The translations under genes were made by a program, and so were the position numbers. Below, piece by piece: positions 32,773-46,777 of a DNA stretch of 64,000 bases. Numbering within the stretch: the first letter of the stretch is position 1; each line of letters starts with the position of its first letter. Source of the DNA: Rhodobacter sp. NTK016B (lineage in GTDB: Bacteria; Pseudomonadota; Alphaproteobacteria; Rhodobacterales; Rhodobacteraceae); the NCBI RefSeq assembly GCF_017303295.1, contig NZ_JAFKOK010000007.1, positions 1 through 64,000 of the forward strand. The letters are read 5' to 3'. The notes under the pieces were generated by a model. That model saw only the letters and a list, made by a program, of their open reading frames with translations, did no database searches and had not been told where the DNA came from.

Positions 32773-33181
32773 TTGGCGATAACGGCTGAGTCGGCAATGG
32801 CGCGAATCACGGGGCGCGCGGCTGACGTAACCTGTGGTTGTGTCGCGCGGGGACGGCATCGCGGTGAACGCTGCGTCAACCGGTCACGCACGCGTTGATC
32901 CGGGCACGCTTCACGGCTTTGTCAACGAGCGGCCTTGCTTTGACTTTTCCGCGATGCCCACGGTGCTGAAAAACATGGCGGAATTGCGGCCTGGTTTTTC
33001 GAAATTTACAAATTGCCACGTTCCGGGTTAACAAATTTACAAAAAATCCGTTGTTAAAAAAAGAGTTACCAAAAAATTGACCGATACGCTAAGATCCCGG
33101 CAGGAGTGAGGACGGCTGTTTCCGCGACGCATACCGCAGGGTCGGGTGCATCGGGGCGGCCCCAAGGCAGGAGGATCGCAG
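32773..33181 (+). promoter_or_regulatory. Leader/promoter region of acs with AT-rich direct repeats
   Basis: No gene is supported in these 409 bases. The last 180 bases before acs are strikingly AT-rich for this genome (about 32995-33085). AAATTTACAAA occurs twice, at 33002-33012 and 33033-33043, starts 31 bases apart, close to three helical turns, as expected for a regulator binding one face of the DNA. Short inverted motifs GTTAAC and TTGTTAA lie between and after them. This is the likely control region for acs and perhaps for the downstream acetate genes. Confidence 0.5.
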
Positions 33182-35143
33182 ATGTCGGATCTGGCACAGG
33201 CGGGCGTGTACCCCGCGTCGGCGGATTTCACCCGGAAGGCGCATATTGACGCCGAGAAATACGAGGCGATGTATGCCGAGTCGGTCAGCAACCCCGAGGC
33301 CTTCTGGGCCGAGCACGGCAAGCGGATCGACTGGATCAAGCCCTATACCAAGGTGAAGAACACCACCTTCGATTTCGGCAAGGTCGATATCAAGTGGTTC
33401 GAGGACGGCGTGCTGAACGTTGCCTATAACTGCGTCGACCGCCATCTGGCGACGCGCGGCGATCAGACCGCGATTATCTTTGAACCCGACGATCCCAAGG
33501 ATCCGGCGCAGCATATCACCTACAAAGAGCTGTCGGAAAACGTGAACCGGATGGCCAACGTTCTGCTGTCGCAGGGCGTGATGCGCGGCGACCGGGTGGT
33601 GATCTATCTGCCGATGATCCCGGAAGCTGCCTATGCGATGCTGGCCTGCGCTCGGATCGGCGCGATCCATTCGATCGTTTTCGCGGGCTTCTCGCCCGAC
33701 GCGTTGGCCAACCGGATCAACGATTGCGGCGCCAAGCTGGTGATCACCGCCGATACCGCCCCGCGTGGCGGGCGCCGCACGGCGCTGAAATCGAATACCG
33801 ACGCGGCGCTGCTGCACTGCTCGGACAAGGTGCGCTGCCTTGTCGTCAAACATACTGGCGATCAGACGAGCTGGATCGACGGCCGCGACGTGGACGTCAA
33901 ATACCTGATGAAACACGCGTCGCCCGATTGTCCGCCGCGTCCGATGAATGCCGAGGATCCGCTGTTCATCCTGTACACCTCGGGCTCGACCGGCAAGCCG
34001 AAGGGCGTTGTGCATTCCTCGGGCGGGTATCTGGTCTATGCGGCGATGACGCATGAACTGACCTTCGATTACCACGAAGGCGACGTTTTCTGGTGCACCG
34101 CCGATGTGGGCTGGGTCACCGGCCACAGCTACATCATCTACGGGCCGCTGGCGAACGGGGCTACGACGCTGATGTTCGAAGGCGTGCCGACCTACCCGGA
34201 TGCGGGCCGGTTCTGGGCCGTGTGTGAAAAGCACAAGGTCAACCAGTTCTACACCGCACCGACCGCGATCCGCGCGCTGATGGGGCAGGGGACGGAATGG
34301 GTCGAGAAATACGATCTGTCGTCGCTGAAACTGCTCGGCTCGGTCGGCGAGCCGATCAACCCCGAAGCGTGGAACTGGTACAACACCCATGTCGGCAAGG
34401 GGAATTGCCCGATCGTCGACACGTTCTGGCAGACCGAAACCGGCGGCCACATGCTGACGCCGCTTCCGGGCGCCATTCCGGCCAAACCCGGCTCGGCCAC
34501 CAAGCCCTTCTTCGGTGTGAAGCCCGTGGTTCTGGATCCGACCAGCGCCGAGGAACAGAAGGACACCAAGGCCGAGGGCGTGCTGTGCATCGCCGATAGC
34601 TGGCCGGGCCAGATGCGCACCGTCTGGGGCGATCACGAGCGGTTCCAGGACACCTATTTCAGCCAGTACAAGGGTTATTACTTCACCGGCGACGGCTGCC
34701 AGCGCGACGAGGACGGTTATTACTGGATCACCGGGCGCGTCGACGACGTGATCAACGTCTCGGGCCACCGGATGGGCACGGCGGAAGTCGAAAGCGCGCT
34801 GGTCGCGCATGCCAAGGTCGCCGAGGCCGCGGTGGTGGGCTATCCGCACCCGGTCAAGGGGCAGGGCATCTACGCCTATGTCACGCTGATGAACGATATC
34901 GAGCCGTCGGAAGAGCTGCGCAAAGAGCTGGTGAAATGGGTCCGCACCGAGATCGGGCCGATCGCGTCGCCCGACCTGATCCAATGGGCGCCGGGTCTGC
35001 CGAAAACCCGCTCGGGCAAGATCATGCGCCGCATCCTGCGTAAGATCGCCGAGGACGATTTCGGCGCGCTGGGTGACACCTCGACGCTGGCCGATCCGTC
35101 GGTGGTCGAGGACCTGATCGACAACCGCATGAACAAGAGCTGA
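33182..35143 (+). CDS. acs: Acetyl-CoA synthetase
   Basis: A 653-residue AMP-forming ligase that makes acetyl-CoA from acetate, ATP and CoA. The adenylate-forming motif [19 protein letters not shown], the acetate pocket [24 protein letters not shown] and [21 protein letters not shown] are intact, and [13 protein letters not shown] near residue 605 holds the catalytic lysine that is controlled by acetylation in the family. The start at 33182 lies just after an AGGAGG-like site. adk follows after 14 bases. The neighbouring symporter and signalling genes, and the PHB locus beyond, place it in acetate assimilation. Confidence 0.97.
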
Positions 35144-35157
35144 CGGGGGCCGGGCGC

Positions 35158-35838
35158 ATGAACGAGACGATGACCAAGACCGCCGTGCTGATCCTGCTGG
35201 GGCCTCCGGGCGCGGGCAAGGGCACGCAGGCCCGGATGCTGGAAGAGCGCTTCGGCCTCGTTCAGCTGTCGACGGGCGATCTGCTGCGCGCGGCGGTCGC
35301 CGCGGGCACCGAAGCGGGGCTGGCTGCCAAGTCGGTGATGGAGGCCGGCGGGCTTGTCTCGGACGAGATCGTGCTGGCGATCCTGAAGGACCGCATGGCC
35401 GAGCCCGACACCGCGCGGGGCGTGATCCTTGACGGTTTTCCCCGCACGCCGGGGCAGGCCGAGGCGCTGGACGCGCTGCTGGCCGAACAGGGCCTGAGCA
35501 TCTCTGCCGCGATTTCGATGGAGGTCGATGACGCGGCGATGGTGACGCGGGTTTCGGGCCGCTACACCTGCGCCGCCTGCGGCGAGGGGTATCACGACAG
35601 CTTCAAGCAGCCGGCCAAGGCCGGGACCTGCGACAAATGCGGCAGCGGCGATTTCAAGCGCCGGGCCGATGACAATGCCGAGACGGTGGGGGCGCGTCTG
35701 ACCGCCTATCACGCGTCCACGGCACCGCTGATCGCCTATTACGAGCAGCGCGGGGTTCTGCAACGCGTCGACGGCATGGGCGCCATCGACACGATCGCCG
35801 CCGATCTCGGCGCCATCGTGAAAGACGTCACGGACTGA
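35158..35838 (+). CDS. adk: Adenylate kinase (long, zinc-LID form)
   Basis: A 226-residue enzyme for AMP + ATP = 2 ADP. P-loop GPPGAGKGT at residues 15-23, AMP-site LSTGDLLR and DGFPRTPGQAEAL, and a long LID with four cysteines (CAACGEGYH ... CDKCGSGDF) that bind zinc. Placed 14 bases after acs, it is well suited to recycle the AMP made by acetyl-CoA synthetase. Alphaproteobacteria usually have another adk in the ribosomal-protein operon, so this may be a second copy; that cannot be checked here. Confidence 0.94.
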   Translation: MNETMTKTAVLILLGPPGAGKGTQARMLEERFGLVQLSTGDLLRAAVAAGTEAGLAAKSVMEAGGLVSDEIVLAILKDRMAEPDTARGVILDGFPRTPGQAEALDALLAEQGLSISAAISMEVDDAAMVTRVSGRYTCAACGEGYHDSFKQPAKAGTCDKCGSGDFKRRADDNAETVGARLTAYHASTAPLIAYYEQRGVLQRVDGMGAIDTIAADLGAIVKDVTD

Positions 35839-35937: not shown

Positions 35938-36195
35938 ATGTCTGACAAATCGGCCAGTGCCTACTGGGCGGCGAATATTCGGCTGATCACCATCTGTCTG
36001 GTGATCTGGGCCGTCGCCTCCTTCGGGCTCGGTATTCTATTTCGCCCGCTGCTTTCGGGCATCGCCGTCGGGGGCACGGACCTCGGCTTCTGGTTTGCCC
36101 AGCAGGGCTCGATCCTGACCTTCCTGGTCCTGATCTTCTTCTATGCCGCGCGCATGAACAAGATCGACCGGGAATTCGGCGTCGACGAGCAGTAA
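35938..36195 (+). CDS. DUF4212 small subunit of sodium:solute symporter
   Basis: An 85-residue protein with two transmembrane helices (LITICLVIWAVASFGLGILF and GSILTFLVLIFFYAARMN) and the DUF4212 pattern YWAANIRL ... GFWFAQQGS ... MNKIDREFG. It precedes the large symporter by 15 bases, the usual pairing in the VC_2705-type family. GGGAGGACATC precedes the start. It probably stabilises or assembles with the symporter. Confidence 0.9.
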   Translation: MSDKSASAYWAANIRLITICLVIWAVASFGLGILFRPLLSGIAVGGTDLGFWFAQQGSILTFLVLIFFYAARMNKIDREFGVDEQ

Positions 36196-36210: not shown

Positions 36211-37995
36211 ATGGATCAATTCACTCTCAACCTGATCGTGGTGGGGCTGTCATTCGCCCTCTACATCGGGATCGCGATCTGGGCCCGAGCCGGGTCCACG
36301 TCGGAATTCTACGCCGCCAACCGGGGCGTTCACCCGGTTCTCAACGGCATGGCCACCGCGGCCGACTGGATGTCGGCGGCCTCGTTCATCTCGATGGCCG
36401 GGATCATCGCCTTTGTCGGCTATGACAACTCGACCTACCTGATGGGCTGGACCGGCGGCTACGTGCTGCTGGCGCTGTTGCTCGCGCCTTACCTGCGCAA
36501 ATTCGGCCGCTTCACGGTGCCGGATTTCATCGGCGACCGTTTCTACAGCCAGACCGCGCGTATCGTGTCGGTCATCGCGCTGCTCGTCATCTCGACCACC
36601 TACGTGATCGGCCAGATGGCCGGTGCCGGTGTCGCCTTCTCGCGCTTCCTCGAAGTGTCCAGCTCGACGGGTCTGTGGATCGCCTCGGCGGTGGTGTTCT
36701 GCTACGCCGTTCTCGGCGGCATGAAAGGCATCACCTATACGCAGGTCGCCCAGTATTGCGTGCTGATCGTCGCCTATACGATCCCGGCGATCTTTATCTC
36801 GCTGCAGCTGACCGGCACCTTCCTGCCGCAGATGGGCCTGTTCAGCGCCGATGCGTCCGGCACGCCGCTGCTGGCGCATCTTGACGGTCTGCTGACCGAT
36901 CTGGGCTTCCGCGCCTATACCGAGCACCATTCGAACACGCTGGACATGGTGCTGTTCACCATGGCGCTGATGATCGGGACCGCGGGTCTGCCGCACGTCA
37001 TCATCCGCTTCTTCACCGTGCCGAAAGTGTCGGATGCCCGTGCCTCGGCTGGCTGGGCGCTGGTGTTCATCGCGCTGCTCTACACCGTGGCTCCGGCTGT
37101 GGGGGCGATGGCGCGCTACAACATCACCACGCAGATGTGGCCCGATGGCGTGACCGGCGAGGCGGTGTCGCTCGAGACAATCGAGACCGGCGAGCAATAC
37201 AACTGGATGCGCAACTGGCAGACCACCGGCCTGCTGGGCTGGGAAGACAAGAACGGCGACGGCCGGATCCAGTACTACAACGACGCCAGCGCGGACATGC
37301 AGGCGGTTGCCGCAGAGCGGGGCTGGAACGGCAACGAGCTGACCAACTTCAACCGCGATATCCTCGTGCTGGCCAACCCGGAAATCGCCGGTCTGCCGGG
37401 CTGGGTGATCGCGCTGATCGCGGCGGGCGGTCTGGCGGCGGCACTGTCCACGGCGGCGGGTCTGCTGTTGGCGATCTCGTCGGCGGTGTCGCATGACCTC
37501 ATCAAGTCTGTGCTCAATCCGGGCATCAGCGAGAAAGGCGAAATGCTGGCCGCGCGGATCTCGATGGCGGTTGCCATCCTGATCGCGACGATCCTGGGCC
37601 TGAACCCTCCGGGCTTCGCGGCGCAGGTGGTTGCTATCGCCTTTGGTCTGGCAGCGGCCTCGCTGTTCCCGACGATCATGATGGGGATCTTCTCGAAGAC
37701 CATGAACTCGGCCGGTGCGGTCGCGGGCATGCTGGTCGGCCTTGTCGTGGAGATGGTCTACATCTTCACCTATGTCGGCTGGTTCTTCATCCCGGGCACC
37801 AACATGCTGGCCAACAACGCCGATAACTGGCTGTTCGGTATCCAGCCGGCCTCGTTCGGTGTGGTCGCCGCGATCCTGAACTTCGTCGTGGCCTATGTCG
37901 TGCTTGCCATGACCAAGCCCGCCCCGGCAGAGATCCAGGATCTGGTGGAATCGATCCGCGTGCCGCGCGGCGCCGGTGTGGCCCAGTCGCACTGA
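36211..37995 (+). CDS. Sodium:solute symporter, VC_2705 subfamily (probable acetate uptake)
   Basis: A 594-residue inner-membrane symporter with about 13 helices. Family motifs: YAANRGVHPVLNGMATAADWMSAASFISMAG near the N-terminus, RFTVPDFIGDRF, GLPHVIIRFFTVP and ALSTAAGLLLAISSAVSHDL. A soluble loop of about 85 residues (around 305-390) is typical of this subfamily and absent from ActP. Substrate by context (acs upstream) is acetate or another short-chain carboxylate. A 15-base tandem duplication covers its stop codon. Confidence 0.9.
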   Translation: MDQFTLNLIVVGLSFALYIGIAIWARAGSTSEFYAANRGVHPVLNGMATAADWMSAASFISMAGIIAFVGYDNSTYLMGWTGGYVLLALLLAPYLRKFGRFTVPDFIGDRFYSQTARIVSVIALLVISTTYVIGQMAGAGVAFSRFLEVSSSTGLWIASAVVFCYAVLGGMKGITYTQVAQYCVLIVAYTIPAIFISLQLTGTFLPQMGLFSADASGTPLLAHLDGLLTDLGFRAYTEHHSNTLDMVLFTMALMIGTAGLPHVIIRFFTVPKVSDARASAGWALVFIALLYTVAPAVGAMARYNITTQMWPDGVTGEAVSLETIETGEQYNWMRNWQTTGLLGWEDKNGDGRIQYYNDASADMQAVAAERGWNGNELTNFNRDILVLANPEIAGLPGWVIALIAAGGLAAALSTAAGLLLAISSAVSHDLIKSVLNPGISEKGEMLAARISMAVAILIATILGLNPPGFAAQVVAIAFGLAAASLFPTIMMGIFSKTMNSAGAVAGMLVGLVVEMVYIFTYVGWFFIPGTNMLANNADNWLFGIQPASFGVVAAILNFVVAYVVLAMTKPAPAEIQDLVESIRVPRGAGVAQSH

Positions 37996-38090: not shown

Positions 38091-39914
38091 ATGGAACCGC
38101 AGATCGAGACGATCATCGCTTTCCTCGAAACGGTGCATCCTTATGACAGCCTGCCGCGCAACGAGCTGGTGCGAGTCGCCACTTCGTTCGGCCGCAGGGA
38201 ATACCGCGCGGGCGACCCCATCTACGAAGCTGACGAGCCGCTGAAGGGCCTCTACCTGATCAAGCGCGGCTCGGTCGAAGTGACCGACCGCAACGGCGTG
38301 CTGGTCTCGATCCTGGGTCCGCGCAACACCTTCGGGGAGCGGGGCCTTCTGCGCGACGGTCTGGCGGTGACGACGGCGGCGGCGGTCGAGCCGTCGGTCG
38401 TGCTGCTGCTGCCCGAGGCCGAATGGCGCAGGCTGATCGCGGGCGTTCCGGCCTTCGAGAGGTTCTTCAACCGCTCGCGCCCGGCCGAGACGCGTGGCAC
38501 CGATTTGTCGACGCTCAAGGTCTCGGACCTGATGGCGCGCATGCCCGTCACCCTGTCGCCCGAGGCCAATGTGACCGAGGCCGCGCGGATCATGCGCGAC
38601 CAGCATATCAGCTCGATCGCTATCATGCGCGACGAGGCGCTGCTGGGTCTTGTCACCACGCGCGACCTGACCGAACGGGTGCTGGCCGCCGAATTGCCGG
38701 GCACGACGATGCTGGAACAGGTGATGACGCCCGATCCCATCACCCTGACGCCCGATGCGCTGGGCTCGGATATCCTGCACACGATGCTTGAGCGCGGGAT
38801 CGGCCATGTGCCGGTGGTGCAGGACGGCAAGCTCAAGGGGATCATCACGCAGACCGACCTGACGCGGTTTCAGGCGGTCAGTTCGGCGCTGCTGGTCCGC
38901 GACGTGGCGGCCTGCGAAACCCCCGAGGAAATGGCCGAAGTCACCGCCCGCATCCCGCGCCTGCTGGTGCAGCTTGTGGCGGCGAACAACGCGCATGAAG
39001 TCGTCACCCGGCTGATCACCGACATCGCCGACACGGTGACGCGGCGGCTTCTGAAACTGGCCGAGGCGCAACTGGGCCCCGCGCCGGTGCCCTATCTGTG
39101 GCTCGCCTGCGGCAGTCAGGGACGGCAGGAACAGACCGGCGTTTCCGATCAGGACAATTGCCTGATCCTTGACGATGCCGTCACGCCCGGGGACCGGGAC
39201 TATTTCAAGGCGCTCGCGCGCTTCGTCTGTGATGGGCTCAATACGGCGGGCTACGTCTATTGCCCCGGCGACATGATGGCCACGGCCGAGCGCTGGTGTC
39301 AGCCCAAATCCGTCTGGCGGCGCTATTTCCGCGGCTGGATCGACACGCCCAGCCCCGAGGCGCAGATGCTGGCCTCGGTCATGTTCGACCTGCGCCCGAT
39401 CGGGGGCACTCCGGCGCTGTTTCGCGACCTGCAGGAAGAGACGCTGTCGCTGGCGTCAAAGAATTCGATCTTCGTGGCGCATATGATTTCCAACGCGCTG
39501 AAGCATCACCCGCCCTTGGGCCTGCTGCGCGGCTTCGCGACCGTGCGGTCGGGCGAGTACAAGAACCATATCGACATGAAGCATAACGGCGTCGTGCCGG
39601 TGACTGATATCGCCCGCGTCTATGCGCTGCGCGGCGAGCTGACCGAGGTCAACACCCGCGCGCGGATCGAAGCCGCCGAAGATGCGGGCGTCGTTTCGGT
39701 CTCGGGCGCGCGGGACCTGATCGAAGCCTATGACCTGATTGCCGCGCTGCGGCTGGAAAATCAGGCGGCTCTGGTCAAGGCGGGCAGAAAGCCCGACAAT
39801 TACCTTGCGCCATCGGACCTGTCCGATTTCGAGCGCAGCCATCTGCGCGACGCGTTCGTCGTCGTGCGTACCATGCAATCGGCCCTGAGCCAGCGAAGCG
39901 GTGTGCTGGGGTGA
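38091..39914 (+). CDS. cNMP-binding / CBS-pair / DUF294 nucleotidyltransferase-like signalling protein
   Basis: A 607-residue cytosolic protein with four parts: cyclic-nucleotide-binding domain (about 10-130; LYLIKRGSVEV, FGERGLL), a pair of CBS domains (about 143-265; QHISSIAIMRDEALLGLVTTRDLTERV, GIGHVPVVQDGKLKGIITQTDL), a DUF294 nucleotidyltransferase-like domain (about 300-440; LACGSQGRQEQTGVSDQDNCLIL, the GSxxRxE...DxD pattern) and DUF294 C-terminal helices to the end. This protein is widely linked to acetate-type symporters and DnaQ-like exonucleases in proteobacteria, as here. It probably senses a nucleotide and modulates partners; no target is known. Confidence 0.9.
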   Translation: MEPQIETIIAFLETVHPYDSLPRNELVRVATSFGRREYRAGDPIYEADEPLKGLYLIKRGSVEVTDRNGVLVSILGPRNTFGERGLLRDGLAVTTAAAVEPSVVLLLPEAEWRRLIAGVPAFERFFNRSRPAETRGTDLSTLKVSDLMARMPVTLSPEANVTEAARIMRDQHISSIAIMRDEALLGLVTTRDLTERVLAAELPGTTMLEQVMTPDPITLTPDALGSDILHTMLERGIGHVPVVQDGKLKGIITQTDLTRFQAVSSALLVRDVAACETPEEMAEVTARIPRLLVQLVAANNAHEVVTRLITDIADTVTRRLLKLAEAQLGPAPVPYLWLACGSQGRQEQTGVSDQDNCLILDDAVTPGDRDYFKALARFVCDGLNTAGYVYCPGDMMATAERWCQPKSVWRRYFRGWIDTPSPEAQMLASVMFDLRPIGGTPALFRDLQEETLSLASKNSIFVAHMISNALKHHPPLGLLRGFATVRSGEYKNHIDMKHNGVVPVTDIARVYALRGELTEVNTRARIEAAEDAGVVSVSGARDLIEAYDLIAALRLENQAALVKAGRKPDNYLAPSDLSDFERSHLRDAFVVVRTMQSALSQRSGVLG

Positions 39915-39930
39915 GCGACGGAGACGCCTC

Positions 39931-40485
39931 ATGCTGATCGACCTGATGGGAGCACTGGCGACGGGCTTCGGCCTGATGGGGCTGGTGCTGATGGTCAACC
40001 GGCTGGTCCTGCGCGGCGCGCTGGGGCGGTGGATCTATCCCGCCAGCGTCGCGGCGGGGATGATCCTGTACACGGTCTGGGCGGAATACACCTGGGCCGA
40101 CCGCACGATCGACGCGCTGCCGCAGCTTACGCTGGTCTCCGAGGATGGCGACGCGGTGCCGTACCGGCCCTGGACCTATCTTTGGCCGCAAACCACGCGC
40201 ATGGTTGCCATCGACCTGTCGCAGACGCGCACCCATCCGCAGCAGCCGGGGCTGGTGATGACCCGGATCGTGCTGATCGGGCGCTGGCAGCCGATGCGGG
40301 CGGTCACGGTGGTTTATGATTGCGCGGACCATCGCCGCGCCGATCTGCGCGAGGGCGTGGAACTGAATGCGGACGGGACGCTGGAAGGGGCGGACTGGAC
40401 ATCGCTTGATGCCGAAGATGCGGCCCTGCGCGCCGCCTGTTCGGTTGTGGAGGAGGAACCCGATGAGCAAGGCAGCGGAGCCTAA
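39931..40485 (+). CDS. Small membrane-anchored hypothetical protein
   Basis: A 184-residue protein with two N-terminal hydrophobic segments (LIDLMGALATGFGLMGLVLMV and ASVAAGMILYTVWAEYTW) and a soluble remainder with no recognised family (VVYDCADHRRADLREGVEL). It lies 16 bases after the DUF294 gene and overlaps the response-regulator gene by 23 bases, so it belongs to the same transcript. The start at 39931 is inferred from the first methionine of the hydrophobic segment; there is no strong binding site. Function unknown; perhaps the sensor part of the pathway. Confidence 0.65.
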   Translation: MLIDLMGALATGFGLMGLVLMVNRLVLRGALGRWIYPASVAAGMILYTVWAEYTWADRTIDALPQLTLVSEDGDAVPYRPWTYLWPQTTRMVAIDLSQTRTHPQQPGLVMTRIVLIGRWQPMRAVTVVYDCADHRRADLREGVELNADGTLEGADWTSLDAEDAALRAACSVVEEEPDEQGSGA

Positions 40486-40897
40486 GCGAATCCTCGTCGT
40501 CGAGGACGAGGACAACATCGCCGTCGCGCTGGATTACCTGATGACGCGCGAAGGCTACAGCCAGCAGCGCATCGCCACCGGCGCCGGCGCCGTCGCGCTG
40601 ATCCGCGAGACCCGGCCCGATCTGGTGCTTCTGGATGTGATGCTGCCCGAAGTGTCGGGCTACGAGATCTGTCAGGACGTACGCATGGACCCCTCGCTCA
40701 ACGATGTGAAGATCCTGATGATGACCGCGCGCGGCTCGGCGATGGAGCGGCGCAAGGGGCTGGCGATGGGGGCCGATGGCTTCATCTCGAAACCCTTCGA
40801 GCTGAAGGCCCTGCGCGCCGAAGTGCGGCGCATCCTTGCCGGCGAGGCGCCCGGCGATCTGGAGGACGGCGCGCGCGGCGAGGCGCGCCATGCGTGA
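40463..40897 (+). CDS. Single-domain response regulator
   Basis: A 144-residue CheY-like receiver: acidic pair E14-D15, phosphoacceptor D58 in LVLLDVMLPEVSGYE, T in MMTARG, and the conserved lysine in SKPFELK. No output domain follows; the last 25 residues are acidic. GGAGGAACCCG precedes the start. It overlaps the previous gene by 23 bases and the next, a degenerate sensor/exonuclease, by 8 bases, so the pair is translationally coupled. The partner lacks an evident phospho-accepting histidine, so the true kinase may be elsewhere. Confidence 0.9.
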   Translation: MSKAAEPKRILVVEDEDNIAVALDYLMTREGYSQQRIATGAGAVALIRETRPDLVLLDVMLPEVSGYEICQDVRMDPSLNDVKILMMTARGSAMERRKGLAMGADGFISKPFELKALRAEVRRILAGEAPGDLEDGARGEARHA

Positions 40898-42977
40898 CCG
40901 GCTGACGCTGCGGCTGCGGATCCTGTTGTTCTTCGCGCTGCTGGCGCTCGGTTCCATCGCGCTGGTCGCGGCGGGCCTGTGGGTCGCCGCGCGCGAGACG
41001 GGCTTTGGGGCGCTCGCCCCCGAAGTGGTGCAGGGCGCGCTGGTGGCGGGGTTTGGCATCGTCGGGCTGGTCGTCTGGGTCTGGTTCCTGTTCGACCACA
41101 ATGTCGCACGCGCCATCGACGGGCTGGCCTCGGGGATCCGCGCGCGGGTCCATGCCGGGATCGAGCACGATCTTGCCGCCGAGGCCCGCGCCGCGCGCTA
41201 TCTGGGCGATCTGGCCCCCGCCGCCGAGGCGGTGACGCGCTCGCTGATCGAGACGCGCAGCGCGCTGGCCGAAAGTGTCGCGCGCGAAACCACGCGGCTG
41301 GCGGCCGAGAAGTCGCGGCTGGAGACGCTTCTTGCCGATGTGCCGGTGGCGGTGCTGCTGTGCTCGGCCGAGCATCAGCTGGCTTTCTATAACGGGCAGG
41401 CGGTAGACATTCTGGGCGGCGGCACCGCGCCGGGGCTGGATCGAAAGCTGCTCGATTACCTGCGCGAGGGACCGATCCGCCATGCCTATGACCGGCTGGC
41501 GGGCGCGGGAGATCCCGACGCGGCCTCGGACCTGCTATGCGCGACGACCTCGGGCGGTCGGCTTCTGGCGGGGCGGATGCGGGTTCTTCGGCGGCGGGAA
41601 GAGGGTGTCGAGCCGGGCTACGTGCTGACCCTGCGCGATGTCACCGCCGATATCGCCGCGCATACCCGCCGAGACGCGCTGCTGAGCGAGATTTTCGACC
41701 GCGTACGGCGCCCGGCGGCCAATTTGCAGACGGTCATCGGCGTGTTGGCCGAGCTCGACAGCGCGGCGGAGATGCCCGACCTGTCTGCGGCCCTGCGCGC
41801 CGAGATCGAAACGCTGACGCGCGCGATCACCGAGCTGGGTGCGCGTTATGACGCGATCCAGTCGGATTGGCGGCCCTTGGTCAATACCCGCTCGGGCGAT
41901 CTGCTCGACGGTCTGGCCGCACGGTTTCAGGCGCATGGCCTGCAGTTGGAAACCGAGAGCCTCGATCTGATCCTGCAGGTCGACGGATTCGAGATCATCG
42001 CCTTCTGGACATGGCTGGCCGATCATATCGCGGGCGAGGGGCTGGCGCGCCAGTTCCGCATCGTCATCGAAGAAGAGGACGGCCCGGGCGCGCTGATGCG
42101 GCTGTGCTGGCGGGGCGCGCCCTTGTCGGTGGGGCGGCTCGACGGCTGGCTGTCGGGCTCGCTGGGGCGCGATACCGGCGAGCTGACGGCGCGCGCGGTG
42201 CTGCAGACGCATGGCAGCGAGGCCTGGCCCGAAGCCTTCGACACCGGACATTCGGTGGTGATGCCGATCCGCTCGGTCCGGCGCGCGGGGCGACGGGTCG
42301 CACCGATCGCGCGCAAGGTGGTCTACGATTTCGAGCTGCTGGGCAAAGCACGCAACGCGGCGGTGGCCGAGACGCGGCTGGAAGACCTGACCTTCGTCGT
42401 CTTTGATACCGAGACCACGGGGCTCTCGCCGTCGAGCGACAGCATCGTCCAGATCGCGGCGGTGCGGGTGGTGAACGGTCGGCGGCTGGAGAACGAGGTG
42501 TTCGACACACTGGTCGATCCGAAACGCGCGATCCCGCCCTCGTCGACCGATGTGCACGGGATCACCGACAGCATGGTGGTGGGCGCGCCCGATATCGTCG
42601 AAGCCGGGCAGCGGTTTCACCATTTCGCCGAGGGCGCGGTGCTGATCGCGCATAATGCGCCGTTCGACATGGAATTCCTGCGCCGGCAGGAAGCCGAGAT
42701 CGGGCGTGTCTTCGATCATCCGATCCTCGATACGGTGCTGTTGTCGGCGGTGCTGTTCGGCCAGCTTGAGCAGCATTCGCTGGATGCGCTGACCGCGCGG
42801 CTGGGGATCACCATCCCCGACGAGGCGCGCCATACCGCGCTGGGCGACGCGGTCGCCACCGCCGACGCTTTCCTGCGGCTGGTGCCGATGTTGAAGGCCC
42901 GGGGGCTGTCGACATTCGGGCAGGTCGTGGCCGAGATGCGCAAGCACGGGCGATTGCTGAAGGATCTGAACGGCTGA
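40890..42977 (+). CDS. Degenerate membrane sensor-kinase module fused to DEDDh (DnaQ-type) 3'-5' exonuclease
   Basis: A 695-residue fusion. Residues about 8-75 give two transmembrane helices; about 80-140 a coiled linker; about 145-255 a PAS-like domain (LLADVPVAVLLCSAEHQLAFYNGQAV). Then comes a region shaped like a histidine-kinase dimerisation helix, EIFDRVRRPAANLQTVIGVL, where the usual phospho-His position is not histidine, and a weak ATPase-like region lacking clear N and G boxes. From about 510 there is a DnaQ-type exonuclease with all motifs: FDTETTG (Exo I), HNAPFDMEF (Exo II) and HTALGDAVAT (Exo III, H and D). It overlaps the response regulator by eight bases. The biochemical role and substrate are unknown. 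Confidence 0.85.
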   Translation: MRDRLTLRLRILLFFALLALGSIALVAAGLWVAARETGFGALAPEVVQGALVAGFGIVGLVVWVWFLFDHNVARAIDGLASGIRARVHAGIEHDLAAEARAARYLGDLAPAAEAVTRSLIETRSALAESVARETTRLAAEKSRLETLLADVPVAVLLCSAEHQLAFYNGQAVDILGGGTAPGLDRKLLDYLREGPIRHAYDRLAGAGDPDAASDLLCATTSGGRLLAGRMRVLRRREEGVEPGYVLTLRDVTADIAAHTRRDALLSEIFDRVRRPAANLQTVIGVLAELDSAAEMPDLSAALRAEIETLTRAITELGARYDAIQSDWRPLVNTRSGDLLDGLAARFQAHGLQLETESLDLILQVDGFEIIAFWTWLADHIAGEGLARQFRIVIEEEDGPGALMRLCWRGAPLSVGRLDGWLSGSLGRDTGELTARAVLQTHGSEAWPEAFDTGHSVVMPIRSVRRAGRRVAPIARKVVYDFELLGKARNAAVAETRLEDLTFVVFDTETTGLSPSSDSIVQIAAVRVVNGRRLENEVFDTLVDPKRAIPPSSTDVHGITDSMVVGAPDIVEAGQRFHHFAEGAVLIAHNAPFDMEFLRRQEAEIGRVFDHPILDTVLLSAVLFGQLEQHSLDALTARLGITIPDEARHTALGDAVATADAFLRLVPMLKARGLSTFGQVVAEMRKHGRLLKDLNG

Positions 42978-43086: not shown

Positions 43087-43527
43087 ATGGATCACCACAT
43101 CAATCCCGACCGCACCCGCTTTGCCCGTTTCAAGGACCTGCCACGCGATGCGCCGGTCGAGATGCTCAACCTTGTGCGGCTGCGCGACAGGGCGGTCTAT
43201 GAGGACGGTGAAGATGCACCCGGCACCTTTACTGGCACCCTCACCGGCGCAGAGGCCTATGCCGCCTATGGCCGCGAGAGCGGACCTATCTTCAGGGCCT
43301 TGGGCGGGCGGATTCTCTGGAGCGGCGCGCCGCAGCTGATGCTCATCGGCCCCGAGGACGAGGCATGGGACATCGCCTTCATCGCAGCCTATCCCAGCGG
43401 GCAGGCCTTTATCGACATGATCCGCAACGCGGACTACCAGCGCGCGGCGCGTCATCGCACTGCGGCGGTCGTCGATTCGCGGCTGATCCGCATGGCGCCG
43501 GGGAAAAAGGGCGCGGGTTTTGGCTGA
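43087..43527 (+). CDS. DUF1330 protein
   Basis: A 146-residue protein of the dimeric alpha/beta-barrel superfamily. DUF1330 features: PVEMLNLVRLRD near residue 26, GAEAYAAYGRESGPIFRALGGRILWSG and FIAAYPSGQAFIDMIRNADYQRAARHRTAAVVDSRL in shortened form (YPSGQAFIDM, YQRAARHRTAA). Function is unknown in the family. The start at 43087 is the first ATG (a TTG lies six bases earlier). It is convergent with phaZ, with a shared terminator. Confidence 0.82.
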   Translation: MDHHINPDRTRFARFKDLPRDAPVEMLNLVRLRDRAVYEDGEDAPGTFTGTLTGAEAYAAYGRESGPIFRALGGRILWSGAPQLMLIGPEDEAWDIAFIAAYPSGQAFIDMIRNADYQRAARHRTAAVVDSRLIRMAPGKKGAGFG

Positions 43528-43536
43528 GGCGGATAA

Positions 43537-43566
43537 AACAAAGCCCCGCGCGGGCGGGGCTTTGTC
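43537..43566. terminator. Bidirectional terminator between the DUF1330 gene and phaZ
   Basis: An 11-bp perfect stem CAAAGCCCCGC / GCGGGGCTTTG with a 4-base loop. T-rich sequence lies on both sides (TTTG on plus, TTTG then TTTTATCC on minus), so it can serve both convergent genes. Confidence 0.85.
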
Positions 43567-43586
43567 GGCAAACTTGGGGCGCGCGC

Positions 43587-44873
43587 TCAGTCGTTCGACG
43601 CCGCCAGCGTGACGGCGGGCTTCGGCGCGGCCTTGTTCTTCCGCTCGGCATGGGTGTCCATGAAGCTGAACACCAGCGGGCGGATATTGTTGCGCCAGCT
43701 CGACCCCGCGAAGATGCCGTAATGGCCCGCGCCGGGTTCCAGATGCTGCGCCTTGTAGGCGTCGGGCAGGCCGGTCAGCAGGTCGAGCGCGGCAAGACAC
43801 TGGCCGGGGGCCGAAATGTCGTCCTTGGCGCCCTCGACGATCATCGTCGCGACATTGGTGACCTTGCCGATATCGACGGTCTTTCCGTTCACCACGAATT
43901 CGTTCTTCGCGATTTCGCCGTTCTTGAAGATCCGCTCGACCGTCGAGAGGTAGAATTCGGCGGTCATGTCCATGACGGCGAGGTATTCATCGTAGAAGCG
44001 GTTGTGCTGGTCGCGCTCGCTGCCCTCGCCCCGGGCCTCGGTGGCGATCTTGTCCGAGAAGGCCTGCGCGTGGCGGTCGAGATTCATCGAAATGAAGCCC
44101 GCAAGCTGCAGAAGGCCGGGATAGACCTGACGGCCCACGCCCGCATATTTGAAGCCCACGCGCTGGATCGCCAGATGCTCGAGCTGACCCATCGTCACCC
44201 GGCGGCCGAAATCGGTGACTTCGGTCGCGGCGGCGTCGGGGTCGATCGGGCCGCCGATCAGCGTCAGGGTCAGGGGCTGCGCGTCGGGCTCTTCCTCAGC
44301 CAGCATGGCGGTGGCGGCCAGAGCCAGCGGCGCGGGTTGGCACACCGCGATCACATGCGTGTCGGGACCGAGGAATTTCATGAAATCGACGAGGTACTGG
44401 GTGTAATCCTCGATATCGAACTTGCCTTCCGAAACCGGGATGTCGCGCGCGTTATGCCAGTCGGTGATCCACAATTCCGCATCGGGCAGCAACGAGGCCA
44501 CGGTCGAACGCAGCAGCGTCGCGTAATGGCCCGACATCGGCGCGCACAGCAGGATGCGGCGGCTTTTCTCGGGGCGGCCATTCACATTGAAACGGACGAG
44601 ATCGCCGAACGGGCGCTTCATCTCGGTCTCAAGCTCGACAAGGTGGTCCTTGCCGTCTTCGCCGACCACGGTGCGGATGCCCCAGGCGGGCTTGGTAACC
44701 ATGCGCGCAAAGCTGCGCTCGGTCACGCGGCCCCACGCTTCGACCATGTCGAACATCGGGTTCGACGTAAGGCCGAACACCGGATAGGATGCCATGGCAC
44801 GGGCCGTTGCGCCGAGCCACTCGTTGGTGTTGCGCATCGTTTCCATGAGGTCGTACGTGGCCATTTGTCGCAT
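43587..44873 (-). CDS. phaZ: Intracellular poly(3-hydroxybutyrate) depolymerase
   Basis: A 428-residue alpha/beta-hydrolase that degrades stored PHB. The nucleophile is a cysteine, C178 in HVIAVCQPAPLALAA, as in the PhaZ1 type of Ralstonia eutropha (C183), instead of the serine of extracellular depolymerases. The acid and histidine of the triad probably lie in VEGAKDDISAP and GAGHYGIFAGSSWR. The start at 44873 (MRQMATYD) has GGAG six bases upstream; nine-base-later ATG (44864) is an alternative. Divergent from phaC, sharing a 104-base region that contains a PhaR site. Confidence 0.94.
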   Translation of the reverse strand: MRQMATYDLMETMRNTNEWLGATARAMASYPVFGLTSNPMFDMVEAWGRVTERSFARMVTKPAWGIRTVVGEDGKDHLVELETEMKRPFGDLVRFNVNGRPEKSRRILLCAPMSGHYATLLRSTVASLLPDAELWITDWHNARDIPVSEGKFDIEDYTQYLVDFMKFLGPDTHVIAVCQPAPLALAATAMLAEEEPDAQPLTLTLIGGPIDPDAAATEVTDFGRRVTMGQLEHLAIQRVGFKYAGVGRQVYPGLLQLAGFISMNLDRHAQAFSDKIATEARGEGSERDQHNRFYDEYLAVMDMTAEFYLSTVERIFKNGEIAKNEFVVNGKTVDIGKVTNVATMIVEGAKDDISAPGQCLAALDLLTGLPDAYKAQHLEPGAGHYGIFAGSSWRNNIRPLVFSFMDTHAERKNKAAPKPAVTLAASND

Positions 44874-44943
44874 GGGACTCTCCGTGATGTGACCGCTCAC
44901 GCGCACAGATCGGCGGTTCCACCAAGGGCGCTGCCAGTCTATG

Positions 44944-44954
44944 CTGCAGTGCAG
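44944..44954. promoter_or_regulatory. PhaR operator upstream of phaC
   Basis: CTGC-AGT-GCAG, an exact match to the CTGC-N3-GCAG sequence bound by PhaR of Paracoccus denitrificans. It lies 23 bases before the phaC start and in the region shared with divergent phaZ, so PhaR could repress either or both. Confidence 0.7.
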
Positions 44955-44977
44955 GAGTGTAGGGGGGAGGTTATTCA

Positions 44978-46777
44978 ATGGCAACTTCTGAATGCGAAAA
45001 TTCAGATAAACTGGACGCCTTGAATGAAAACTTGGCAAAGATTGAGACCCTGACACAACGTCTGATTGCTGCGTTTGCGAACAAGCAGCCGCAGCGTCCC
45101 GAGTTGCAGGCGCCGGATCCGTCGATCTATCTGCGCGCCGCGTCGGCCTATTGGAACGAGATGGTCAATCACCCCTCGAAGGTGATCGAGCAGCAGGTGG
45201 AATACTGGGGCAAGACGCTGAAGCATTTCGCCGAGGCGCAGGAAGCGCTCAAGCACGGTCAGCTTGTCGCGCCCGAGGATCATACGCCCGACGACAAGCG
45301 CTTCACCAACCCGCTGTGGAAGACGCATCCCTATTTTAACTACATCAAGCAGCAGTATTTGATGTCCTCGGATGCGATCGAGAAAGCGATCGAGGAGCTC
45401 GACACGCTGGATCCGCGCGAAAAGCGGCGGCTGGAATATTTCGGCAAGCAGATTATCGACATGATGGCGCCGACCAATTTCCTCGGCACCAACCCCGATG
45501 CGCTGATGCGCGCCGTCGAGACCGAGGGCGAGAGCCTTGTGAAAGGGCTTGAGAACCTCGTGCGCGATATCGAGGCCAATAACGGCGACCTGCTGGTGAC
45601 GCTTGCCGACCGCGATGCGTTCAAGGTGGGCGGCAATATCGGCACCACCGAGGGCGAGGTCGTCTATCGCAACCGGATGTTCGAGCTGATCCAGTACAAG
45701 CCGACGACCGAGCAGGTGCACGAAACGCCGCTGATGATCTTCCCGCCCTGGATCAACAAGTTCTACATTCTGGATCTGAAGCCGCAAAACAGCCTGATCA
45801 AGTGGATCGTCGATCAGGGCTACACGCTGTTCGTGGTGAGCTGGGTCAATCCCGATGCCAATTATGCCGATGTCGGCATGGAGACCTATGTCGAAGAGGG
45901 CTATCTGGAAGCCGTCGCCAAGGTCAAAGAGATCTGCAAGGTCAAGCAGGTCAATGTCGTGGGCTATTGCATCGCCGGGACCACGCTGTCGCTGACCCTG
46001 TCGCTGATGCACAAGCGCAAGGACAAGTCGATCAAGTCGGCGACGTTCTTCACCACGCTCACCGATTTCTCGGATCAGGGCGAGGTCGGCGTGTTTCTCG
46101 AGAACGATTTCGTCGACGGGATCGAGGCCGAGGCGCAGGATAAGGGCTACCTGCCCAGCTATTACATGACGAAGACGTTCAGCTACCTGCGTTCGAACGA
46201 TCTGATCTACGGACCGGCGATCCGCAGCTATATGATGGGCGAGGCACCGCCCGCCTTCGATCTGCTGTTCTGGAACGGTGACGGGACCAACCTGCCGGGC
46301 CGGATGGCGGTGGAATACCTGCGCGGGCTTTGCCAGCAGGACAAGCTGTGCACGAGCGGCTACGAGATGTTCGGCGAGACGCTGAAGATCGCGGATGTGA
46401 AAATTCCGCTCTGCGCCGTTGCCTGCGAAACCGACCATATCGCCGCGTGGCGGTCGAGCTTCCGGGGCGTGTCGAAGATGGGGTCGACCAACAAGACCTT
46501 CATCCTGTCGGAATCGGGCCATATCGCAGGGATCGTCAATCCGCCCTCGAAAAAGAAATACGGCCACTACACGTCGGAGCATCCGATCGACGGCGATCCC
46601 GACGCCTGGCGGGCCGACGCCGAGCGGCATGACGGCTCGTGGTGGCCGCGCTGGGAAGAGTGGCTGCGCAGCCGCTCGGGCAAGCTGATTTCCGCGCGTG
46701 AGGTGGCCGATTCGGGGCTTGGCGCCGCGCCGGGCAGCTATGTGCGCGCTAATCCGAACGCTACGTCAAGCACTTAG
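44978..46777 (+). CDS. phaC: Class I poly(R)-hydroxyalkanoate synthase
   Basis: A 599-residue polymerase that links (R)-3-hydroxybutyryl-CoA into PHB on granules. The N-terminal half is the class I helical domain (PSIYLRAASAYWNEMVNHP); the catalytic C-terminal alpha/beta-hydrolase has the PhaC box GYCIAG with nucleophile C331, and the acid and general-base His lie in ACETDHIAAW and SESGHIAGIVNPP. The length is normal for class I. A GGGAGG site precedes the start by about 8 bases. It is followed by phaP and phaR. No phaE partner, consistent with class I. Confidence 0.96.
   Translation: MATSECENSDKLDALNENLAKIETLTQRLIAAFANKQPQRPELQAPDPSIYLRAASAYWNEMVNHPSKVIEQQVEYWGKTLKHFAEAQEALKHGQLVAPEDHTPDDKRFTNPLWKTHPYFNYIKQQYLMSSDAIEKAIEELDTLDPREKRRLEYFGKQIIDMMAPTNFLGTNPDALMRAVETEGESLVKGLENLVRDIEANNGDLLVTLADRDAFKVGGNIGTTEGEVVYRNRMFELIQYKPTTEQVHETPLMIFPPWINKFYILDLKPQNSLIKWIVDQGYTLFVVSWVNPDANYADVGMETYVEEGYLEAVAKVKEICKVKQVNVVGYCIAGTTLSLTLSLMHKRKDKSIKSATFFTTLTDFSDQGEVGVFLENDFVDGIEAEAQDKGYLPSYYMTKTFSYLRSNDLIYGPAIRSYMMGEAPPAFDLLFWNGDGTNLPGRMAVEYLRGLCQQDKLCTSGYEMFGETLKIADVKIPLCAVACETDHIAAWRSSFRGVSKMGSTNKTFILSESGHIAGIVNPPSKKKYGHYTSEHPIDGDPDAWRADAERHDGSWWPRWEEWLRSRSGKLISAREVADSGLGAAPGSYVRANPNATSST

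What the first reader, a model, noticed from the sequence alone, without database searches (positions are those of the whole stretch)
40463..42977. Pseudo-sensor kinase fused to a DnaQ-type exonuclease, coupled to a response regulator in an acetate locus
The 695-residue protein has two membrane helices, a PAS-like domain, kinase-like dimerisation and ATPase-like regions in which the phospho-His position and clear N/G boxes are missing, and then an intact DEDDh exonuclease (FDTETTG, HNAPFDMEF, HTALGDAVAT). It overlaps a CheY-like gene by 8 bases. Exonucleases are known near DUF294 and acetate-type symporter genes, but a membrane sensor driving a nuclease would be an unusual output: perhaps degradation of a nucleotide signal or short RNA/DNA in response to carbon supply. 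That function is inference.
Basis: partly seen in the sequence, partly recalled or inferred. Interest (0 to 1): 0.72.

Follow-up and report, generated by a model that had tools for sequence, protein, structure and literature searches.

The report
Dead sensor kinase fused to nuclease
A bacterial membrane protein joins a sensor kinase that has lost its kinase parts to a nuclease domain that looks intact, sits beside a free-standing signalling partner in an acetate-use gene cluster, and probably lets a phosphorylated signal protein control a nuclease rather than the usual reverse.

Summary
Window 40890-42977 encodes two membrane helices, a PAS-like domain, histidine-kinase-like DHp and CA domains, and a DEDDh exonuclease, overlapping a CheY-like regulator gene by 8 bases. 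Named relatives lie in Alpha-, Beta- and Gammaproteobacteria. In 127 rows with at least 60 DHp residues the phospho-His position never holds His (E 57, D 50); the five exonuclease residues are intact in 187 of 190 rows. DivL, a pseudokinase shown to bind a phosphorylated regulator, is the first profile and fold hit, by a narrow margin. The regulator keeps its phospho-Asp (54 of 54). Its gene is present in 115 of 126 loci with at least 50 DHp residues and 0 of 51 with fewer, including nine that keep the CA domain. So the DHp is probably a docking site for the regulator and the exonuclease the output: reversed two-component signalling. In one phylum sample all 41 genomes with this exonuclease (45% identity or more) have a DUF294 nucleotidyltransferase; seven distant relatives fuse the two. 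The substrate is unknown, and acetate sensing is inference: a CBS-gene-linked exonuclease of Pseudomonas putida (not compared by sequence here) mattered for pyruvate growth, not for 20 mM acetate.

The parts
40463..40897 (+). Stand-alone CheY-like receiver, 144 aa, with phosphorylation pocket present (acidic pair, Asp, Thr, Lys)
   Evidence: Pfam Response_reg 4.5e-25; in 54 neighbouring regulators of the census set Asp and Lys 54 of 54, Thr or Ser 53 of 54
40890..42977 (+). Pseudo-histidine-kinase/DEDDh-exonuclease fusion, 695 aa
40902..41108 (+). Two membrane helices with a very short connecting loop (residues about 5-73), so no room for a periplasmic sensor domain
   Evidence: hydropathy only
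41307..41639 (+). PAS-like domain (residues 140-250)
   Evidence: weak PAS_4 hit; order of helices and strands in the model; LOV/PAS-histidine-kinase chains among the fold matches
41643..41879 (+). DHp-like two-helix region (residues 252-330); phospho-His position is Asp270 (41697-41699)
   Evidence: two long helices in the model; profile match to DivL and histidine kinases; Foldseek first hit DivL 1.2e-9
41883..42299 (+). CA/HATPase-like region without N and G boxes; Trp407, Gly409, His441 conserved
   Evidence: W, G, H invariant in 59 aligned sequences; all three present in 135 of 190 rows, all three absent in 45, other combinations in 10; alpha/beta fold in model
42375..42959 (+). DEDDh exonuclease (residues 496-690); Asp506, Glu508, Asp593, His648, Asp653
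   Evidence: RNase_T 1.7e-37; five residues in 187 of 190 rows; fold matches E. coli DnaQ epsilon (2gui, 1.9 A over 177 columns) and others
39931..40485 (+). 184-aa protein of unknown function with hydrophobic N-terminus; relatives at the same place in many loci of the family
   Evidence: no Pfam or NCBIfam hit; relatives
38091..39914 (+). cNMP-binding, CBS, DUF294 nucleotidyltransferase; NTase-like motif GSQGRQEQTGVSDQD at residue 341
36211..37995 (+). VC_2705-family sodium/solute symporter (TIGR03648)
   Evidence: 1.6e-242
35938..36195 (+). 85-aa ORF before the symporter; place and size of the small subunit that goes with this symporter family (recalled, not tested)
   Evidence: ORF list
35158..35838 (+). 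adenylate kinase
33146..35143 (+). acetyl-CoA synthetase (acs)
   Evidence: TIGR02188 over cut-off

Best explanation
The protein is a membrane-anchored exonuclease whose control module is a dead histidine kinase. It no longer makes or passes on phosphate. Instead its DHp helices are a docking site for the neighbouring CheY-like regulator, which is phosphorylated by another kinase or by acetyl phosphate. Binding of the regulator, together with the membrane/PAS input, shifts the dimer and opens or closes the C-terminal DEDDh exonuclease, as DivK~P is proposed to shift DivL. The exonuclease works in one pathway with the DUF294 nucleotidyltransferase, most simply by removing what that enzyme adds (a nucleotide tail or a nucleotidyl mark), in cells using acetate, pyruvate or similar acids. 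Shown here: no His at the phospho-His position in 127 rows with at least 60 DHp residues, conserved catalytic residues of the exonuclease, conserved phospho-site of the regulator, association of the regulator gene with the DHp, association with DUF294. Inferred: physical docking, direction of control, source of phosphate, substrate.
For: H-box residue E 57, D 50, other 20, His 0 of 127 rows. Regulator gene: 115 of 126 loci with 50 or more DHp residues, 0 of 51 with fewer; at a cut of 60 residues 112 of 120 against 3 of 57. Loci with the CA domain but under 50 DHp residues: 9 of 9 without regulator, so the regulator follows the DHp, not the CA domain. On a tree built without the DHp and CA columns, 5 supported independent changes of DHp: the regulator goes the same way in 3.7 on average, the other way in 0, does not differ in 1.3. 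Regulator Asp 54 of 54. DivL is the first hit by profile (3.4e-8) and by fold (1.2e-9); DivL lacks kinase and phosphatase activity and binds DivK~P (PMC4211667, sections 12 and 14 read). Exonuclease residues 187 of 190. DUF294_C in 41 of 41 genomes with an exonuclease of 45% identity or more, against 82 of 258 others in the phylum sample. Exonuclease fused to CBS-DUF294 in one protein in 7 of 19 more distant loci looked at. G067, without a DUF294_C match, has lost four of the five exonuclease residues. Acetate kinase is present in the genome.
Against: The independent-pairs test does not reach significance (median p 0.125), and taken from the regulator's side, of 8 supported changes the DHp goes the same way in only 3.4 and does not differ in 4.6. 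Eight loci have 60 or more DHp residues but no regulator within 1.6 kb (L206 has one about 3.7 kb upstream); 3 Paracoccus loci have a regulator with 52-59 DHp residues. A mutual-information scan did not single out the DHp (0.28 to 0.57 times expectation). DivL leads the next kinases only narrowly in both searches, so this is no evidence for a DivL subfamily. The kinase module is lost in many loci of the family, so it is dispensable there. DUF294 is not always next door: no hit in the fetched stretch of 17 of 80 named loci. The DUF294 association was not corrected for descent, and the broken-exonuclease case is one genome. No biochemical evidence was found for any fusion member.
Confidence: 0.5

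Rival explanations
1. RNA decay: the protein is a membrane-held 3'-5' exoribonuclease that trims particular mRNAs or small RNAs when the carbon source changes, and DUF294 merely shares the regulon. Control by the regulator may be as above; only the substrate differs.
For: DEDDh fold near DnaQ epsilon, polymerase exonuclease domains and RNase T. The authors of PMC9927547 speculate on mRNA decay for PP_0353 (section 8 read).
Against: Does not explain why the exonuclease is fused to DUF294 in 7 of 19 more distant loci or why 41 of 41 genomes carry DUF294.
Confidence: 0.25
2. Vestigial module: the kinase core is a decaying remnant with no role; only the membrane/PAS part controls the exonuclease and the regulator is a leftover.
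For: DHp and CA both gone in 39 of 73 family-sample loci, in short forms with otherwise the same operon. Mutual information does not point to the DHp.
Against: Trp407, Gly409 and His441 are invariant in 59 diverse sequences; the regulator keeps its phospho-Asp in 54 of 54; the module is kept in three classes. A dead remnant should not hold these.
Confidence: 0.15
3. Second-messenger or dinucleotide degradation: the exonuclease clears a linear nucleotide signal (such as pGpG or a DUF294 product).
For: An oligoribonuclease, also DEDDh, cleaves short RNA and the dinucleotide mimic pNP-TMP (PMC6390093, passages read). The DUF294 protein carries a cNMP-binding domain.
Against: The domain's best model and fold hits are PolC, DnaQ and RNase T types; no cyclase family among the ten window proteins scanned.
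Confidence: 0.07
4. Working kinase with an unusual phosphoacceptor (Asp/Glu or another residue) that phosphorylates the regulator in the ordinary direction.
For: Acidic residue at the H-box in 107 of 127 rows.
Against: N and G boxes absent, Trp aligned with the G1 Asp; the position also holds A, R, L, I, M, P, V, S, Q, G or T in 20 rows.
Confidence: 0.03

Closest known systems
DivL (Caulobacter pseudo-histidine kinase, PDB 4q20)
   Same: PAS + DHp + CA with the phospho-His replaced; single-domain phosphorylatable partner regulator; first hit by profile and fold, narrowly
   Different: Here a nuclease is attached behind the CA domain, the H-box is mostly acidic instead of Tyr, and the partner is encoded next door
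PP_0353 / PP_0354 of Pseudomonas putida (putative exonuclease + CBS-domain protein, linked to MxtR/ErdR)
   Same: RNase_T exonuclease in one operon with a CBS-domain protein; homologues next to actP in P. aeruginosa (PMC9927547, section 7 read)
   Different: No kinase core is mentioned there; its sequence was not compared here, so membership in the same exonuclease subfamily is untested
CrbS/CrbR (MxtR/ErdR) acetate two-component system
   Same: Acetate/symporter setting; membrane sensor with a regulator
   Different: CrbS carries the symporter and STAC domains and is a hybrid kinase; CrbR activates transcription (PMC5715377, abstract in listing)
DnaQ epsilon / PolC-type exonuclease / RNase T
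   Same: Fold and all five DEDDh residues
   Different: Membrane-tethered, behind a PAS-like domain and a dead kinase core
GlnD (nucleotidyltransferase + remover in one protein; recalled)
   Same: Idea of an adding and a removing enzyme joined to a small-molecule sensor, as in the exonuclease-CBS-DUF294 fusions
   Different: GlnD removes with an HD domain, not a DEDDh exonuclease

Membership tests
HisKA-type sensor histidine kinase | phosphoaccepting His in the DHp H-box | tested here: not met
   0 of 127 rows with at least 60 DHp residues; one row has His one column later
HisKA-type sensor histidine kinase | N, G1 and G2 boxes for ATP | tested here: not met
   alignments; HATPase_c in 1 of 59 members at 0.011
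HisKA-type sensor histidine kinase | DHp-CA fold and descent | tested here: met
   profile 3.4e-8 to DivL, about 1e-7 to kinases; fold hits
DivL-like pseudokinase that reads a phosphorylated regulator | dead kinase core with a partner receiver that keeps its phospho-site | tested here: met
DivL-like pseudokinase that reads a phosphorylated regulator | phosphorylation-specific binding of the regulator | not testable with these tools
   needs a binding assay; co-loss is indirect support
DivL-like pseudokinase that reads a phosphorylated regulator | covariation of regulator and DHp surface | tested here: inconclusive
   mutual information not enriched in the DHp
DEDDh exonuclease (RNase_T, PF00929) | five catalytic residues | tested here: met
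   187 of 190 rows; 2 truncated, 1 degenerate
DEDDh exonuclease (RNase_T, PF00929) | nuclease activity | not testable with these tools
   no assay
CrbS/CrbR SLC5-STAC kinase system | symporter domain fused to the kinase | tested here: not met
   two hydrophobic stretches only (first 110 residues scanned); no SSF hit on the protein; symporter is a separate gene

The most novel reading that the evidence does not exclude
A widespread reversed two-component system: a phosphorylated CheY-like regulator is the input, a membrane pseudokinase is the receptor, and a DEDDh phosphodiesterase is the output that removes a nucleotidyl mark or tail added by the partner DUF294 nucleotidyltransferase, so that the pair forms an add/remove switch on short-chain acid uptake or activation, built like GlnD but with an exonuclease-type remover.
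Probability: 0.25. Interest if true: 0.88.

Novelty: new variant of a known kind. Interest (0 to 1): 0.72.

Why it matters
The DivL study asked how widely bacteria use reversed signalling, in which a dead kinase reads a regulator (PMC4211667, discussion read). This family offers a further candidate, present in three proteobacterial classes, with a directly measurable enzyme output and natural deletion variants. It would also give a handle on what the DUF294 nucleotidyltransferases of acetate and pyruvate loci do. No paper on a kinase-exonuclease fusion of this kind showed up in the listings; the held library lacks most subscription journals.

Tried and rejected
Mutual information between regulator and kinase (107 pairs, effective number 87): top pairs spread over the domains, DHp under-represented; taken as uninformative to mildly negative. 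Independent pairs on the tree: right direction, not significant either way round (quick tree without the mixture model). Acetyl-phosphate source: acetate kinase present; the two PTA_PTB hits lie in long frames of 832 and 1149, so a stand-alone Pta is unproven. A phmmer search of the PDB with the single sequence gave only a weak kinase hit (0.073); the alignment profile was needed. A regulator hit in G063 was set to absent by hand; the alignment later showed an out-of-frame match with a stop. G225 and L206 first looked like exceptions; G225 has the regulator, L206 has one further upstream.

Rows dropped: of 113 census loci, 3 (two of G314, one of G263) had no exonuclease hit; with 80 named loci this gave 190 rows. 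The 127-row H-box count keeps the duplicates; without the dropped rows it is 120 rows, E 55, D 46, His 0. Of the places only 16 were fetched for the look at more distant relatives, plus three loci already held.
Full report
What is there. The window holds, on the + strand, acs (33146-35143), adk (35158-35838), a small ORF (35938-36195), a VC_2705-family symporter (36211-37995), a cNMP/CBS/DUF294 nucleotidyltransferase (38091-39914), a 184-aa protein without known family (39931-40485), a CheY-like regulator (40463-40897) and the 695-aa protein (40890-42977). The two hydrophobic stretches are joined by a short loop, so there is no room for a periplasmic sensor domain; any signal enters by the PAS region, the membrane, or partners.

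The kinase core is real but dead. On its own the window protein gives no HisKA or HATPase_c hit, but a profile of residues 252-495 from 59 sequences finds DivL first (3.4e-8) and then ordinary histidine kinases from 1.1e-7, and the AlphaFold model of this part (mean pLDDT 88.7, pTM 0.74) has DivL as its first match in the PDB (1.2e-9), closely followed by other kinases from 3.8e-9. TM-scores are low (0.42) with large rmsd, probably because the two domains are placed differently, so this rests on the E-values and domain order. In the alignment the phospho-His position is Asp270. Over 127 rows with at least 60 DHp residues it is E in 57, D in 50, and in the other 20 A, R, L, I, M, P, V, S, Q, G or T; never His. 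One row has a His one column later. Aligned with the G1-box Asp stands Trp407; Trp407, Gly409 and His441 are invariant in the 59 sequences though not in all 190 rows. The residues that follow the H-box in kinases with phosphatase activity are mostly replaced as well (the phosphatase motif is recalled).

The exonuclease is kept. Asp506, Glu508, Asp593, His648 and Asp653 are all present in 187 of 190 rows; two rows are truncated and one, G067, is degenerate. In the model (mean pLDDT 82.8, pTM 0.51) this domain matches E. coli DnaQ epsilon (2gui, 1.9 A over 177 columns), a bacterial DNA polymerase (9qrn, 1.6 A over 189 columns) and RNase T (3.6 to 4.6 A); the PolC exonuclease of Thermotoga has higher identity (38-39%) but rmsd of 10-14 A.

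The family is wide. A search of 149 genomes of the window's family gave 73 loci of this kind, G067 included; in 299 genomes of the phylum, 39 match the sensor part at 1e-4 or better, though for G314 no exonuclease was found beside it. A scan of named genomes gave 80 loci, among them Rhodobacter capsulatus, Cereibacter, Azospirillum, Bradyrhizobium, Agrobacterium (Alphaproteobacteria), Hydrogenophaga (Betaproteobacteria) and Candidatus Thiodiazotropha (Gammaproteobacteria).

A natural deletion series. Of the 73 family-sample loci, 28 have PAS, DHp, CA and exonuclease with the regulator gene; 39 have neither DHp nor CA and no regulator was seen (one of these, G118, has only 140 bases upstream); 4 have CA but under 60 DHp residues, and no regulator; 1 has a split frame with regulator (G022); 1 has the DHp without regulator (G130). 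Over 177 rows, with a cut of 50 DHp residues, the regulator is present in 115 of 126 loci with the DHp and 0 of 51 without; with a cut of 60, 112 of 120 and 3 of 57. Nine of nine loci that keep CA but have under 50 DHp residues lack the regulator. Losses are seen in the window's family, in a lineage of another class (G209, G310) and in Pusillimonas (L191); three Rhodospirillales-type loci (L217, L222, L224) with 53-56 DHp residues also lack the regulator, and count as losses or as exceptions by the cut chosen. On a tree from PAS-side and exonuclease columns only, five DHp changes are supported; the regulator changes the same way in 3.7 on average, never the opposite way, and does not differ in 1.3, with p 0.125 because the events are few. 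From the regulator's side 8 changes are supported; the DHp goes the same way in 3.4 and does not differ in 4.6. Exceptions with 60 or more DHp residues and no regulator within 1.6 kb: L167, L187, L188, L189, L200, L206, G130, G413; L206 has one about 3.7 kb upstream.

The regulator can be phosphorylated, by its residues. In 54 regulators of the census set the phospho-Asp and Lys are kept in 54, Thr or Ser in 53. A regulator with its phospho-site next to a kinase core without a phospho-donor recalls DivK and DivL. DivL has neither kinase nor phosphatase activity, binds DivK~P through the usual docking face, and is proposed to pass the signal on by its shape (PMC4211667; outline and sections 12 and 14 read). 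Here an enzyme is attached behind the CA domain.

Link to DUF294. In the phylum sample, 41 genomes have an exonuclease with at least 45% identity to the window domain; all 41 have a DUF294_C match, against 82 of the other 258 (Fisher 1.4e-18, not corrected for descent). The DUF294 gene is not always next door: it lies upstream on the same strand within 3 kb in 50 of 80 named loci, and 17 of 80 show no DUF294 hit in the stretch fetched. Of 19 more distant loci looked at, 7 show the exonuclease fused in front of CBS-DUF294 in one protein (L270, L271, L272, L273, L274, L139, L140), 2 a stand-alone exonuclease beside DUF294 (L275, L276), 1 a longer protein with C-terminal exonuclease beside DUF294 (L279). 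G067 has no DUF294_C match in its genome and its exonuclease has lost four of five residues; three other genomes searched in the same call have DUF294. These point to one pathway. The nucleotidyltransferase of the window keeps a GS...D.D motif.

What is known of the pathway. In Pseudomonas putida a deletion of the exonuclease gene pp_0353, in one operon with CBS-domain gene pp_0354, had no effect on 20 mM acetate or succinate but delayed growth on 20 mM pyruvate; the pp_0354 deletion did not. The same paper cites transposon data for a role of pp_0353 at 5 mM acetate, which the authors could not test (PMC9927547, sections 7 and 8 read). In P. aeruginosa the cluster PA3232-PA3235 was about 16-fold up during growth on propionate, while PA3233-PA3235 fell twofold on propionate addition (PMC9765439, passages read). 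Whether PP_0353 is the same exonuclease subfamily was not tested here. So the cue may be short-chain acids in general.

Mechanism. The best-supported reading is that the regulator, once phosphorylated, docks on the dead DHp and gates the exonuclease. The substrate is open. Removal of a DUF294 product is my first choice because of the fusions; that a DEDDh enzyme, an oligoribonuclease, cuts the aryl nucleotide ester pNP-TMP (PMC6390093, passages read) makes removal of a nucleotidyl group from a phenolic side chain chemically conceivable. RNA decay, as suggested in PMC9927547, is the main rival.

Limits. No assay of a fusion member was found. The covariation scan did not support the DHp as the contact. 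The tree test lacks power. The 80 named loci favour relatives of the window.

Noticed in passing
window 33146-35838: acs is followed directly by an adenylate kinase gene, as in many loci of the family; it may recycle the AMP made by Acs.
   Followed up: no
window 39931-40485: A 184-aa protein with a hydrophobic N-terminus and no Pfam or NCBIfam hit lies between DUF294 and the regulator; it is kept in short-form loci too.
   Followed up: partly
L138:3955-5296 (G067): Exonuclease relative with four of five catalytic residues replaced, after acs and adk, in a genome without a DUF294_C match.
   Followed up: partly
L270, L271, L272, L273, L274, L139, L140: Exonuclease fused in front of CBS-DUF294 in one open frame of about 700-820 aa; a symporter gene is within the fetched stretch in L271, L272 and L273.
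   Followed up: partly
window 43365-45023: 552-aa open frame with no Pfam or NCBIfam hit before phaC; not shown to be a gene.
   Followed up: no
G413 (L084), G130 (L097): Long forms with a DHp-like region but no adjacent regulator gene.
   Followed up: partly
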